Source: Spirochaetales bacterium (GTDB lineage: Bacteria; Spirochaetota; Spirochaetia; Treponematales; UBA12059). Taken from it: DNA of 14,492 nt. This document shows, in pieces, positions 10,826-14,432 of the stretch. Numbering within the stretch: position 1 is the stretch's first letter; each line of letters starts with the position of its first letter. Made by a program: the position numbers and the translations under genes. The stretch lies in the NCBI GenBank assembly GCA_004525355.1, contig SPCK01000015.1, positions 1 through 14,492 of the forward strand. Direction: 5' to 3'. A model generated the notes under the pieces. It was not told the DNA's origin. It did no database searches and saw only the letters and a list, made by a program, of their open reading frames with translations.

Positions 10826-11296
10826 CTATCGCTTGACGAGATCCGCGTATGCCGCCTCGGCGGCGAGCGCCAAGTCCGACGGAGTGAGCAGCATCTGCAA
10901 TCCGCGCGTTCCCGCGCTGACGGACACGCGATCCCACAGCTGCGCTGTCTCGTCCAGGAATACCGGCAACTTCCTCCTGGCACCGATTGGGGAGCAACCG
11001 CCCCGTACGTACCCGGTCAATGGTTCAAGTTCCCGCATCGGCAACATCGCGACTGACTTGTCGCCGCTTGCCCGGGCGGTCTTCTTGAGGTCCAACTCAG
11101 CCGAGCCCGGTATGACGCACATGAAAGGGCCGGTTCGATCCCCGACCACGACCAGCGTCTTGAATACCATATCCTGATCTATTCCCAGCTTGGAAGCGAC
11201 CGCTACGGCCGACAGATCATGTTCGTCCACGGCGTATTCCCTGGTCTCTACTTCCATGCCGAGGGTCTTGAGTTTCCTGAGCGCGTTCGTAGTCAT
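10826..11296 (-). CDS. ybaK: YbaK/EbsC-family aminoacyl-tRNA deacylase
   Basis: A 156-residue cytoplasmic protein of the YbaK/EbsC family, which hydrolyses mischarged tRNAs; E. coli YbaK (159 residues) clears Cys-tRNA(Pro) in trans with prolyl-tRNA synthetase. Conserved parts seen: VFKTLVV with K46 at the same place as the essential lysine of E. coli YbaK, a VIPGSAELDLKK segment, GYVRGGCSPIG at 95-105 and VSAGTRGLQ at 126-134. The strong Shine-Dalgarno (AGGAGGAGG, complement of 11304-11312) is 7 nt before ATG, and the ATG overlaps the upstream oxidoreductase stop as ATGA, so it is translated as last gene of the operon. Exact tRNA specificity within the family is not decided by sequence reading alone. 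Confidence 0.93.
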   Translation of the reverse strand: MTTNALRKLKTLGMEVETREYAVDEHDLSAVAVASKLGIDQDMVFKTLVVVGDRTGPFMCVIPGSAELDLKKTARASGDKSVAMLPMRELEPLTGYVRGGCSPIGARRKLPVFLDETAQLWDRVSVSAGTRGLQMLLTPSDLALAAEAAYADLVKR

Positions 11297-12096
11297 ACGA
11301 CATCCTCCTCCTGCAGGAACGACGGCTGATAGCGAATTCGCCGTCTCGGTATACCCAGTTCCCCGAGTGCACGCCTCACGGACGCGGTCAAGGCCCCGGC
11401 AGCACCGATCCAGAACGTACTTCGGGAATCAGCCAGTTCCGGGCCGACGAGCTCAGTGAGGGTAGCCCTGTCCAGGGTTCCGCGCCGGCCATTCCAAAGG
11501 GGATCATGAGAAAGGATGGGTATGGTGCTGATCGACGGATTGGCTTGGGTCAAGGCAATCAGGTCATCAAGGCACGCCAGTTCCTGACGGGTCCGTGCCG
11601 CCCAGAGGATCAGCACGCGGCGGTGTTCTCCTCGTGCGGCCAAGGTCAGTGCCATGGACAAGAATGGCGCCACGCCAAGACCTTCCGCGAGGAACACAAG
11701 AGGGCCACTTTCGCAACCCGCTGGCATCCGATCTTCAAGCGTGAATCTGCCGCAGGGGCCGATGATATCTGCCGCCCAGGGGTTTCGGGCATCGGAGCCG
11801 GGAAAGATTTCGGCGGCATCGACGAGGCCCAGACTCCAGTCGTCGCTCGCCCCGACCATGAATGATACCGCGTCGCCCGATTCAGGAGACGAGACCATCG
11901 TCAGGGAGCGGTACCTTCGGGACAGCCCTGGGGCTCCGACCCGAACGAAGGCGAACTGCCCCGCCCGGTATGGGAATGTACAGGCGCCATACCCGGGCAA
12001 CGACTGTAATCGCAGCCTCACGATAAGCGGCGCAAGTGTGTCCATGTTCGAAACCAGAAAGCGACGAGGCGGCCTGAACAGTGCACTGAGCCTCAC
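11293..12096 (-). CDS. FAD/NAD(P)-binding oxidoreductase of the ferredoxin-NADP reductase type
   Basis: About 267 residues, a two-domain flavin reductase of the ferredoxin reductase superfamily. The FAD barrel (about 10-120) shows YRAGQFAFVRV, RSLTMVSSP (63-71; equivalent to the RxYS flavin motif, with Leu for Tyr and Thr for Ser) and GPCGRF (113-118). The nucleotide domain shows FLAEGLGVAPFLSMAL (135-150), LILWAARTRQEL and a C-terminal WIGAAGALTASVRRALGELG, where the usual Cys of the CGPxxM motif is replaced. No cysteine cluster for an iron-sulfur centre is seen, so it is not a complete PyrK or dioxygenase reductase. The frame is open from 12186, but that would overlap the GH57 gene; GTG 12096 has GGAGG 7 nt upstream and leaves a 28-nt gap, and keeps the whole FAD domain. 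Electron acceptor unknown. Confidence 0.85.
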   Translation of the reverse strand: MRLSALFRPPRRFLVSNMDTLAPLIVRLRLQSLPGYGACTFPYRAGQFAFVRVGAPGLSRRYRSLTMVSSPESGDAVSFMVGASDDWSLGLVDAAEIFPGSDARNPWAADIIGPCGRFTLEDRMPAGCESGPLVFLAEGLGVAPFLSMALTLAARGEHRRVLILWAARTRQELACLDDLIALTQANPSISTIPILSHDPLWNGRRGTLDRATLTELVGPELADSRSTFWIGAAGALTASVRRALGELGIPRRRIRYQPSFLQEEDVV

Positions 12097-12103
12097 CGCT
12101 TTG

Positions 12104-12108
12104 CCTCC
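12104..12108 (-). promoter_or_regulatory. Ribosome binding site deciding the oxidoreductase start (GTG 12096)
   Basis: GGAGG on the minus strand lies 7 nt before GTG 12096. Later ATG 12045 would cut the first strand of the flavin domain and has no such site; earlier starts run inside the GH57 gene. Confidence 0.65.
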
Positions 12109-12124
12109 GGAAATGCTGTGTACT

Positions 12125-13711
12125 CTATCGCTTTTTCCGGAATATTCGATAATTGATATCCGGGAAGAGATTGTTGCGCTTTTCAAGACGAGTCAGCCAT
12201 TCGGTTCCGACGGTATTGGCGCACAGCATTTCATAGATACGGGTAAAATTGGTAACCGCGTCCTCGACCTGTTTGCGGGCGAAGGATCCGGATTTCCCCG
12301 AACGCAGCAGGAAGGGCCAATCCGAGGCCTGGGACAGCAGCACCTCGCGGGTCGCCTGATTGAGCACCCGCTCGCGCAGGCCGCTTTCATTGGGAAAGCG
12401 CTCAGCCAGCTCGATCATGCGCTCGATCATCTTGAAGCAATGGCGATACACCCAGTCATTGGCTTTCTCGAGCCAGATGCCGGCGTATCCGCCATCCCCC
12501 CACGACGAAAGCTCGGGTACCGATTCGAAATTCTCGGGGTATGCCCGCTGGTATTCAGCCAGTGATACGAGACGTAGCTCTGACGTGTCCTGAGCCTTTC
12601 GAAATAGAGCCTCCAGCCACTGTATGCCCTCGTGCCACCAATGGCCGAACAGTTCGGCATCGTAGGGAGCCACCATGAGGGGCGGTCTATCCATGTGCGC
12701 AGCAGCCTTGTGCGCCTGGCGAGTCCGGTTGTACAGGAAGTTTTCAGCATGCTCCACCGCCTTCGCCGCGGCCAGATCTGGATTGTACGGGACCTTCTCG
12801 ATGCCTCGGCCGGTCACGGCCCAGTACTTGAAACCGGTAAACGTGCGAATTTGGTTTTGTTCGATGTAGGGTCCGATATAGTCGAGGGGCAGGTCAAATC
12901 CGATGTCCCGATAAAAATCGCGGTACGCCGGATCGGACGGATAGCCCTCGGTCTCGGACCAGACGGCCTCGGTGGCTGCTACGTCCCTGATGAAGGCGTT
13001 GAATCCGTTTGGACAGGCAACGGGCGCATAGGATCCGCGCCTCGGAGTAGGCTTGCCCAACATGGCTCCACGGATCGAGACAACCGTATATTGCAGTCCG
13101 TATGCTCCCAGTATCTCCTCGACCCCCGGGTACCAACCCAACTGCGGCATCCAGAATCCCGAGGGCGATCTTCCGAAGGTCGACCTGAACGACACCACTG
13201 CCGCCTCGACCTGGGCAGCTACAGTCTCGGGGTATGAGCGATAGATGGGCAGGAAGGCCTGCGTGGCGCCGCTGGTCATCAGCTCCAGGCGCCCTTTTTT
13301 GTAATAGAAATCAAAGGCGCTGAGGACGTTCCCGCCATGCAGAACCGTAAAGTCGTCGAAATTTTGCTGATAGAGGTCAGCGTACATACGAGCCAACGGG
13401 CCGAAAACCGGATCGTCAGCGGTACGCTCGATTTCCTTGCCCGCCAGTTCAAGTTGCTCGCACAGCCAGGACGCATAGCGTTCCTTGAGGAGAGCGTCAC
13501 CGAGCATCGCAGAAACGGTCGGCGATATTGCCATAGTCAGTTTCCATGGTATGCGCTCAGCCTCGAGCCGGGCGAACAAGCGAAGCAGAGGCAGGTACGT
13601 TTCCGACAAGGATTCGAACAGCCACCGTTCTTCAAGGTAGCGCGGGTAATCCGGTTGGCGAACGAAAGGGAGGTGTGCGTTGAGAACGAGCGCTAAAGAA
13701 CCGGTTTCCAC
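12125..13711 (-). CDS. GH57/DUF1957 protein, branching-enzyme homologue with altered catalytic pocket
   Basis: About 528 residues, the size of GH57 1,4-alpha-glucan branching enzymes (TK1436/TTHA1902 type). Seen in order: region 1 LNAHLPFVR (10-18; usually HAHLPYVR), a long helical part, region 2 SGATQAFLP (147-155; usually GATHGFLP), region 3 GFWMPQLGWYPG (185-196; usually WLPECAY with the nucleophile Glu), TGFKYWAVTG, region 4 APYDAELFGHWWHEG (348-362) with acid/base D351 kept, and a helical C-terminal domain with SSWGDGGYAGIWLEKANDW. So N11, Q151 and Q190 replace His, His and Glu. GTG 13711 is chosen since GGAGG lies 8 nt upstream and the upstream gene then ends 16 nt before; TTG 13738 would overlap it with no site. 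Fold assignment is firm, catalytic branching is doubtful. Confidence 0.88.
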   Translation of the reverse strand: METGSLALVLNAHLPFVRQPDYPRYLEERWLFESLSETYLPLLRLFARLEAERIPWKLTMAISPTVSAMLGDALLKERYASWLCEQLELAGKEIERTADDPVFGPLARMYADLYQQNFDDFTVLHGGNVLSAFDFYYKKGRLELMTSGATQAFLPIYRSYPETVAAQVEAAVVSFRSTFGRSPSGFWMPQLGWYPGVEEILGAYGLQYTVVSIRGAMLGKPTPRRGSYAPVACPNGFNAFIRDVAATEAVWSETEGYPSDPAYRDFYRDIGFDLPLDYIGPYIEQNQIRTFTGFKYWAVTGRGIEKVPYNPDLAAAKAVEHAENFLYNRTRQAHKAAAHMDRPPLMVAPYDAELFGHWWHEGIQWLEALFRKAQDTSELRLVSLAEYQRAYPENFESVPELSSWGDGGYAGIWLEKANDWVYRHCFKMIERMIELAERFPNESGLRERVLNQATREVLLSQASDWPFLLRSGKSGSFARKQVEDAVTNFTRIYEMLCANTVGTEWLTRLEKRNNLFPDINYRIFRKKR

Positions 13712-13727: not shown

Positions 13728-14432
13728 TCAGTCTTCAAAGTCGCTCAGAATGCGCGATGGATGCCGCTGGGGCGCGTTTCGTATCTGGAGATGGTCCAAA
13801 GCCGATAGCGCCGCCAAGGCGGCCGCATCCGGCTCAAGATCATCGAGCGAATTGGCCAGCAATGCCCGCGGCGTTCGTACTGAGTTGGAATGGGCTATGG
13901 CCTTGAAGCGCGAGCCATGACGTACACAGAGATCCAGCCGGTAGGCCGTATCCTGTTGGGGCATGTGCAGGTACCAGTGATCATCATTCTCGCCTATCGG
14001 GATATCGTATGAGGCGCTTCCCTTTCCGTCATAGCCTGAATTTTGGATGACCCTGATGAAAAAGCCTCCAAATCCGTCTGAGGAGCACAGGGCATCGAAC
14101 TCATCTTCACGTACGTCCCAGAAGGCGAAAGCCCATTCGGGATCCCGTGGTATGCAATGGATCACCGTCTCGTTATAGCGTCTCGCAATGCAGGGCGCTG
14201 CATCGAGGGAAGCGTCAATCTCGTCAAGCTCCGAGCCGGAGTATTTCTTCTCCTCGACGTGGATAGCCGCGACGTCTGAAGACTTGCGATCCTCGTTATC
14301 CTCTTCGTACGCCTCGATAATAGCCTCGACTACGAATACCCGTTCAAGGGACGGTGGTAGATCGAGACCCATTTTCTCCGCGAGGGCATACAGCGCTTCT
14401 ATGGATAATACATTGAGCCGTTCGACTTTCAC
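13728..14432 (-). CDS. DUF4912-domain protein with Rho/SAP-like N-terminus
   Basis: A 234-residue protein without signal peptide or membrane segment, so cytoplasmic. Residues 9-43 (LSIEALYALAEKMGLDLP and on) resemble the short helical Rho_N/SAP-like module found at the head of such proteins. An acidic linker follows (about 41-75). The DUF4912 core shows DPEWAFAFWDV (97-107), HWYLHMP (152-158), AYRLDLCVRHG (163-173) and AHSNSVRTPRA (180-190). The molecular role is unknown; the Trp-rich beta domain and its place directly before a GH57 protein suggest carbohydrate or partner binding, which is inference. It is first of four genes and starts with GTG, with no Shine-Dalgarno. The frame upstream is open to the window edge but has no start codon, and the N-terminus fits the family, so it is probably complete. 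Confidence 0.8.
   Translation of the reverse strand: MKVERLNVLSIEALYALAEKMGLDLPPSLERVFVVEAIIEAYEEDNEDRKSSDVAAIHVEEKKYSGSELDEIDASLDAAPCIARRYNETVIHCIPRDPEWAFAFWDVREDEFDALCSSDGFGGFFIRVIQNSGYDGKGSASYDIPIGENDDHWYLHMPQQDTAYRLDLCVRHGSRFKAIAHSNSVRTPRALLANSLDDLEPDAAALAALSALDHLQIRNAPQRHPSRILSDFED

What the first reader, a model, noticed from the sequence alone, without database searches (positions are those of the whole stretch)
12659..13711. GH57 branching-enzyme homologue with three pocket residues exchanged, including nucleophile Glu to Gln
Seen: N11 in LNAHLP, Q151 in GATQAFLP and Q190 in WMPQLGW stand where GH57 branching enzymes have His, His and the nucleophile Glu, while the acid/base D351 (APYDAELFGHWW) and the rest of the scaffold are kept. 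Each change is one base from the usual codon, yet the long frame is intact, so decay of the gene is unlikely. Known: GH57 enzymes are retaining and need the Glu. Inference: this is a glucan-binding pseudo-enzyme, a regulator, or an enzyme of different mechanism.
Basis: partly seen in the sequence, partly recalled or inferred. Interest (0 to 1): 0.72.

Follow-up and report, generated by a model that had tools for sequence, protein, structure and literature searches.

The report
Dead branching enzyme kept by spirochaetes
A spirochaete gene that looks like a sugar-polymer branching enzyme has lost the amino acid that does the cutting, its close relatives have lost it too, and the gene is still protected by selection beside a constant partner gene, so it has probably become a binding or scaffold protein rather than an enzyme.

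Summary
The frame (12125-13711, minus strand, 528 aa) is a GH57/BE_C protein whose predicted fold matches Thermotoga AmyC, a branching enzyme (TM-score 0.93). The nucleophile (AmyC E185) is Q190 and the acid/base polariser (H10) is N11; the acid/base (D351) is kept. In the 120 best database matches (one is this protein) N11 is invariant and none has Glu at 190 (95 Gln, 24 His, 1 Asn). Q151 is not a clade trait; an unreported H214R/K is. The gene is not decaying (dN/dS 0.03-0.08).

The clade is one step in a class-wide erosion. All 25 spirochaete loci examined outside the class keep His/Glu/Asp, against 11 of 99 rows inside it. One family (46 loci) kept none of 12 groove positions. A DUF4912 gene lies just upstream in 98 of 98 class loci. 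Relative constraint favours the C-terminal helical domain. Five genomes without detectable glycogen synthase or phosphorylase keep the pair.

Best reading: a catalytically dead, possibly glucan-binding scaffold working with DUF4912. Branching-enzyme-like GH57 proteins lacking catalytic residues are in print, so this is a new variant. Partner binding, glucan binding and lack of activity are inferred, not shown.

The parts
12125..13711 (-). GH57/DUF1957 branching-enzyme-like CDS, 528 aa plus stop (GTG start at 13711; a longer 537-aa reading from TTG 13738 is possible)
12518..13693 (-). Glyco_hydro_57 catalytic-barrel domain (PF03065)
   Evidence: residues 16-407 of the 537-aa reading
12140..12439 (-). 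BE_C C-terminal helical domain (PF09210); more conserved than the barrel in the class
13679..13681 (-). N11, where AmyC has H10 (polariser of the acid/base); 120 of 120 listed matches
13142..13144 (-). Q190, where AmyC has nucleophile E185; Q 95, H 24, N 1 of 120
13070..13072 (-). R214, where branching enzymes with the full His/Glu/Asp set have His (97%); R 105, K 13 of 120
13259..13261 (-). Q151 (His in most of the clade): variable site, not a clade trait
12659..12661 (-). D351, acid/base (AmyC D349), kept in 120 of 120
12500..12502 (-). W404, gatekeeper (AmyC W402), kept 119 of 120
12473..12475 (-). W413, gatekeeper (AmyC W411), kept 119 of 120
12320..12322 (-). D464, near the active site (AmyC D463), kept 120 of 120
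13728..14432 (-). DUF4912-protein CDS (234 aa), just upstream, same strand, 16 bases before the GTG start of the GH57-like gene; the conserved partner gene
14280..14432 (-). N-terminal helical part of the DUF4912 protein, Rho_N-like by relatives
   Evidence: helices; Rho_N over cut-off in L046 and L081
14214..14255 (-). Conserved motif EEKKYSGSELDEID in the low-confidence linker of the DUF4912 protein
13842..14177 (-). DUF4912 domain (PF16258), predicted Fn3/Ig-like beta sandwich

Best explanation
The protein is a catalytically dead branching-enzyme-like GH57 protein that works as half of a two-gene unit with the DUF4912 protein encoded 16 bases upstream. Shown: the nucleophile and the polarising His are replaced clade-wide, the gene is under purifying selection, the DUF4912 neighbour is constant in the class loci examined, and the C-terminal BE_C helical domain is more conserved than the barrel. 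Inferred: in this clade the substrate groove (W30, R242, D351, W404, W413, D464) still binds an alpha-glucan or similar ligand without cutting it, the BE_C domain is the docking surface for the DUF4912 protein, and the Rho_N-like N-terminus of that partner connects the pair to nucleic acid or another protein. The pair would thus be a ligand-sensing scaffold or regulator. In the related family where the groove itself is gone, only the scaffold role would remain.
For: Residue mapping to AmyC. No Glu at 190 and N11 in 120 of 120 listed matches, the window protein included. C186, a residue that PMC6616209 calls a branching-enzyme sequence feature, is Leu 18 or Met 1 of 19 clade rows. dN/dS 0.029-0.083 over six Q-clade pairs (three of them with dS about 2); a seventh had saturated dS, pN/pS 0.144. 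Groove positions W30, R242, D351 and D464 are kept in 120 of 120, and W404 and W413 in 119 of 120. Best structural match 2b5d, TMq 0.93. The same list holds PDB entries titled as a GH57 amylopullulanase E256Q mutant in complex with maltopentaose; I take E256 to be that enzyme's nucleophile (recalled). DUF4912 just upstream in 98 of 98 class loci and 11 of 25 elsewhere. The same 87 class-or-closer genomes hold both families. BE_C identity exceeds barrel identity in 100% of 151 Q-clade, 1028 f2, 15 f3 and 65 f12 pairs, against 36% of 621 pairs among His/Glu/Asp proteins. Five of those 87 genomes lack detectable GlgA and glycogen phosphorylase but keep the pair.
Against: No physical contact between the two proteins was tested, and gene adjacency is indirect. 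Glucan binding was not tested. W358 (100 of 120) and F467 (34 of 120) are partly relaxed, and lid-2 positions 473 and 477 are changed. Groove and pocket positions are kept less often than other conserved positions (7 of 12 against 52 of 61, Fisher p 0.046). Clade genomes with GlgA (G063, G169, G271, G245) show no TIGR01515 branching enzyme, which leaves room for residual activity. The BE_C excess is already visible, weaker, in basal class families that still have His/Glu/Asp (79% of 14 distinct pairs), so it is not tied to loss of catalysis alone; and the comparison cannot tell a tighter BE_C from a looser barrel.
Confidence: 0.6

Rival explanations
1. Pure scaffold: the protein binds no glucan at all. 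Only its fold and the BE_C surface matter, for a role such as envelope or RNA-related housekeeping.
For: The related family f2 kept 0 of 12 groove/pocket positions against 29 of 61 other conserved positions (Fisher p 0.002) yet keeps the gene and the DUF4912 neighbour (46 of 46). Genes next to the pair, where identified, are housekeeping genes: a poly(A) polymerase head domain and tRNA-editing YbaK in this clade, MraZ in basal families (Pfam-checked in L004 and L033), a RluA-like gene (by reading its sequence) in f2 and f3.
Against: In the window's own clade W30, R242, D351 and D464 are kept in 120 of 120 listed matches, which needs a reason.
Confidence: 0.27
2. Still an enzyme: another carboxylate or a substrate-assisted route replaces E190, for example E253 or D464, giving branching or transfer activity by a changed mechanism.
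For: D351 is kept in 120 of 120. Residue 253 is acidic in 96% of the clade against 14% of His/Glu/Asp proteins. Clade genomes with GlgA have no TIGR01515 branching enzyme; of these only G063 was seen listed, without a match, in the two further searches.
Against: 24 of 120 have His and one Asn at 190, so the position is not tuned to Gln. E400, the other new acidic residue near the groove, also appears in 4 of 6 f3 loci, where 5 of 6 keep Glu190, so it is no replacement. D464 is present in intact enzymes too. No coordinates were available to measure whether residue 253 can reach the reaction centre.
Confidence: 0.1
3. Gene decay or a sequencing error in one draft genome.
For: The window's genome is a 506-contig draft.
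Against: Intact 528-codon frame. No Glu at 190 in any of the 120 listed matches or in the 18 further Q-clade tree rows, sets that overlap. dN/dS is 0.03-0.08.
Confidence: 0.01

Closest known systems
GH57 glycogen branching enzymes (Thermotoga maritima AmyC 2b5d; TT1467 3p0b; TK1436 3n8t)
   Same: Same domains and fold (TMq 0.93, 0.83, 0.85); acid/base Asp, the second His and most groove aromatics kept.
   Different: Nucleophile Glu is Gln, polariser His is Asn, a third pocket His is Arg, Cys186 is Leu. NCBIfam scores (304 and 248 bits) lie far below the branching-enzyme cut-offs of 920 and 1000.
'GBE-like' proteins of family GH57 (PMC6037648, passages seen)
   [quoted passage not shown] bacterial.
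   Different: That group is defined by sequence only. In the passages I saw there is no DUF4912 partner, no spirochaete-wide erosion series and no shift of constraint. Its species list (supplement) could not be read here.
ISA2, the non-catalytic isoamylase subunit of plants (PMC12510319, abstract and outline seen)
   Same: Works-like analogue: an alpha-glucan enzyme homologue kept although its catalytic site is lost, acting in a complex for which multiple glucan-binding sites are proposed.
   Different: Another family and kingdom; its partner is an active paralogue, whereas here the likely partner is an unrelated DUF4912 protein.
GH57 amylopullulanase E256Q mutant with maltopentaose (PDB 9jlr, title only)
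   Same: A Glu to Gln change in a GH57 enzyme, crystallised with a glucan.
   Different: A laboratory mutant; here the change is natural and accompanied by further pocket changes.

Membership tests
GH57 (fold family) | Glyco_hydro_57 and BE_C domains, incomplete barrel plus helical domain | tested here: met
   Pfam 99.1 and 119.7 bits over cut-offs 21.2 and 25; model matches 2b5d
GH57 glycogen branching enzyme (as an active enzyme) | Catalytic nucleophile Glu | tested here: not met
   Q190; no Glu in 120 of 120 listed matches
GH57 glycogen branching enzyme (as an active enzyme) | Acid/base Asp | tested here: met
   D351 in 120 of 120
GH57 glycogen branching enzyme (as an active enzyme) | Polarising His of the acid/base (AmyC H10) | tested here: not met
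   N11 in 120 of 120
GH57 glycogen branching enzyme (as an active enzyme) | Branching activity | not testable with these tools
   Needs an assay
GBE-like group of GH57 (PMC6037648) | Close to branching enzymes but one or both catalytic residues missing; bacterial | tested here: met
   definition
GBE-like group of GH57 (PMC6037648) | Placement on the published GBE-like branch | not tested
DUF4912 protein (partner) | PF16258 over its cut-off | tested here: met
   91.6 bits, cut-off 29.4
DUF4912 protein (partner) | Rho_N N-terminal domain | tested here: inconclusive
   Over the cut-off of 24.9 in relatives L046 (32.2) and L081 (29.3); below it in L050 and L034; not listed for L032, L060 or the window's own protein

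The most novel reading that the evidence does not exclude
Spirochaetes of this class have turned a glycogen branching enzyme into the constant structural or regulatory partner of a DUF4912 (Rho_N-like plus Fn3-like) protein. The unit is unrelated to glycogen, is kept even in a 1.14-Mb genome without detectable glycogen synthase or phosphorylase, and has repeatedly lost its active site while its C-terminal domain became the functional core.
Probability: 0.45. Interest if true: 0.78.

Novelty: new variant of a known kind. Interest (0 to 1): 0.6.

Why it matters
Many database sources call these proteins '1,4-alpha-glucan branching enzyme' (names), and that label is probably wrong for much of a class of spirochaetes. 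The material is a natural series: intact enzymes, then loss of the polariser, the nucleophile or the acid/base, then of the groove, with the same neighbour. That makes it possible to test how an enzyme becomes a scaffold. If the pair has a non-metabolic role, it is a conserved spirochaete function nobody has named, kept even in a strongly reduced genome. In the held papers DUF4912 occurs once, in a plant transcriptome study (listing only).

Tried and rejected
Gene decay or sequencing error: rejected by the intact frame, the homologues and dN/dS. 'N/Q/Q as a conserved set': rejected, since site 151 varies. Relocated carboxylate: E400 rejected because it occurs in f3, where Glu190 is mostly kept; E253 left open. 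Replacement by a GH13 branching enzyme as the reason for the loss: looked for and not found in the window's family. TIGR01515 at E 1e-60 hit 31 of 296 genomes, all outside the class (which included four genomes of the window's family). PF02806 hit 11 of 108 class genomes. A GH13_8-like enzyme (type recalled) used as query hit 9 of 108. In some searches only G000 and G063 of the window's family were seen listed, both without a match, and few f2 genomes were listed. Glycogen operon around the pair: not seen in the neighbours scanned; several gave no family. Function of DUF4912 from structure: only a general Fn3/Ig-like sandwich with many equal matches, which says little. Whether the second GH57 of the genome (C299) is active: not settled; Glu lies in the aligned part (WLSEYAW against WLTERVW), but the first alignment to 1k1w ends at residue 177 and the next starts at 331. 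Carboxylate distances in the pocket: not possible, no coordinates are given. Papers: DUF4912, DUF1957, GH57 with Treponema pallidum, GH57 with pseudoenzyme, and GH57 with branching enzyme, spirochaete and catalytic residues gave no description of this system in the listings; the held library lacks most subscription papers.

Full report
What is there. The minus-strand frame 12125-13711 encodes 528 aa from a GTG start, with Glyco_hydro_57 and BE_C domains. The closest solved sequence is T. maritima AmyC, 2b5d (438 bits; TT1467 follows at 234). An AlphaFold model from 71 homologues (mean pLDDT 85.5, pTM 0.87) matches 2b5d best (TMq 0.93, 38% identity). AmyC is described as a glycogen-branching enzyme in PMC6616209 (passages and section 17 read).

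Residues. Table 1 of that paper names E185 nucleophile, D349 acid/base and H10 polariser of the acid/base. The alignment puts them on Q190, D351 and N11. AmyC H12, W29, R237, F261, W356, W402, W411, S462, D463 and F466 fall on identical residues; C186, which the paper calls a branching-enzyme feature, falls on L191. So the window protein has lost the nucleophile and the polariser but has kept the acid/base and most of the groove.

Clade. The best 120 of 7670 matches with E up to 0.001 are listed (60-100% identity; P0001 is the window's own protein). All 120 have N11, D351 and H13. At 190: Q 95, H 24, N 1. At 214: R 105, K 13, G 1, P 1. At 151: H 92, N 16, Q 6, G 5, Y 1. Among positions at least 97% conserved in 37 proteins with the full His/Glu/Asp set, the commonest residue of 18 clade rows differs only at 11, 190, 214 and, mildly, 299. 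Site 151 in the finding is therefore not a clade trait, and 214 should be added. In a quick tree of 125 rows, made without the columns around 11, 151, 190 and 351 (504 of 528 kept), the clade (19 rows) has SH-aLRT support 100 and is the sister of families f3 plus f2 (support 92).

The wider series. Outside the class all 25 spirochaete loci examined read His/Glu/Asp at the three catalytic sites. Inside the class 11 of 99 rows do, 40 of 99 keep Glu at 190 and 62 of 99 keep Asp at 351 (counted). In f2 (46 loci) none has the triad, one keeps W404 and none W413; 11 of 46 keep Glu190 and 15 of 46 Asp351. Of 73 positions conserved at 94% or more in the intact set, f2 keeps at 80% or more 0 of 12 groove/pocket positions and 29 of 61 others (Fisher p 0.002). 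This clade keeps at 95% or more 7 of 12 and 52 of 61 (p 0.046). By parsimony the nucleophile state changes at least 9 times, the acid/base 11 and the polariser 6. Because every row outside the class is intact, these read mostly as losses; the count itself cannot show direction.

Selection. dN/dS in six pairs of the clade is 0.029-0.083 (three with dS near 2); a seventh pair had saturated dS (pN/pS 0.144). Five f2 pairs give 0.049-0.134, and three pairs from f5, f12 and f24 give 0.014-0.078. The gene is not decaying in either eroded group. Between pairs, BE_C (434-524) is more alike than the barrel (4-400) in 100% of pairs in the clade (151), f2 (1028), f3 (15) and f12 (65), but in 36% of 621 pairs of His/Glu/Asp proteins. 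At barrel identity 0.5-0.6 the mean BE_C identity is 0.74 in the clade, f2 and f12, against 0.52 in the His/Glu/Asp set. A weaker excess is present in basal class families that keep His/Glu/Asp (79% of 14 distinct pairs, printed as 28 because both orders were counted), so the shift may have come before loss of catalysis. Pairs are not independent, and a tighter BE_C cannot be told from a looser barrel.

Link to glycogen. The window's genome (506 contigs, 93% complete) has no detectable GlgA, glycogen phosphorylase or GH13 branching enzyme, though it has two GH13 matches. Incompleteness could hide a gene. Of the 87 class genomes with the pair, five lack GlgA (G000, G056, G149, G238, G266), and the same five lack phosphorylase. 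G056 is a single 1,139,633-base contig; that length is the one I recall for T. pallidum, and the identity is not given by the tools. Its relative of the window gene reads D/E/P at sites 11, 190 and 351, so there the Glu is present and the Asp is lost (L061). Three f1 relatives do have GlgA and a distant phosphorylase match, and 82 of the 87 have a GlgA-family match, so the pair mostly coexists with glycogen genes.

Mechanism. I commit to a dead GH57 protein that in this clade keeps a ligand groove and serves as a scaffold or sensor with DUF4912. Loss of the nucleophile, selection, neighbourhood and constraint difference are shown. Absence of activity follows from the established two-residue mechanism of GH57 (PMC6037648, passages) and was not measured. 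Glucan binding, contact with DUF4912 and any nucleic-acid link are inference. PDB titles list a laboratory GH57 E256Q mutant with maltopentaose, so a Glu to Gln change of this sort is compatible with binding.

Known or new. 'Like' groups of GH57 without one or both catalytic residues are in print, including 60 bacterial branching-enzyme-like sequences (PMC6037648). This protein fits that definition, and I could not see whether it or its kin are in their list. The passages read there and the searches gave no account of the DUF4912 pairing, the graded erosion across the class or the constraint shift. Hence: new variant of a known kind.

Noticed in passing
L001 (G000:C299), 349-2268 minus: The genome's only other PF03065 match is a protein of the 4-alpha-glucanotransferase type (1k1w 145 bits). 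Its Glu motif aligns, but the region that should hold the acid/base Asp does not align, so it may be a 4AGT-like protein with incomplete machinery.
   Followed up: partly
window 14214-14255 and relatives: The low-confidence linker of the DUF4912 protein carries a conserved EEKKYSGSELDEID motif (eight positions at 90% or more of 46 homologues). A basic-basic-aromatic trace at the same place is visible in several other class families, and the motif is absent in the f2 and f3 rows seen (part of the output was cut). Possibly a docking motif.
   Followed up: partly
L030, L032, L033, L034, L035, L039, L043, L049, L053: In nine loci of other families of the class the DUF4912-GH57 pair sits directly before a gene of the MraZ cluster (Pfam-checked in L033), the usual first gene of the division and cell-wall cluster (recalled).
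   Followed up: partly
L061 (G056), 1,139,633-base contig: A strongly reduced genome keeps the DUF4912-GH57 pair although the searches find no GlgA, phosphorylase or GH13 branching enzyme.
   Followed up: yes
class genomes with GlgA: TIGR01515 matched no genome of the class, and two further searches hit 11 and 9 of 108 class genomes, while 82 of 87 pair-bearing genomes have a GlgA-family match. What branches their glycogen, if anything, is unclear.
   Followed up: partly
L058 (G000:C431), 1-1842 plus: A GH13 protein, cut at the contig start, with TreS-type scores far under the cut-off; by reading its N-terminus it resembles amylosucrases, which could make glucan without GlgA.
   Followed up: no
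window protein residues 473 and 477 (lid-2 region): Thr473 and Tyr477, nearly fixed in the His/Glu/Asp set, are replaced in this clade (kept in 2% and 0% of 120), so the lid over the groove has probably changed too.
   Followed up: no
window 11293-12186 minus: The next frame downstream (NAD_binding_1, 36.4 bits; ferredoxin-reductase-like scores far under the cut-offs) overlaps the end of the GH57 frame by about 60 bases and is followed by YbaK.
   Followed up: no
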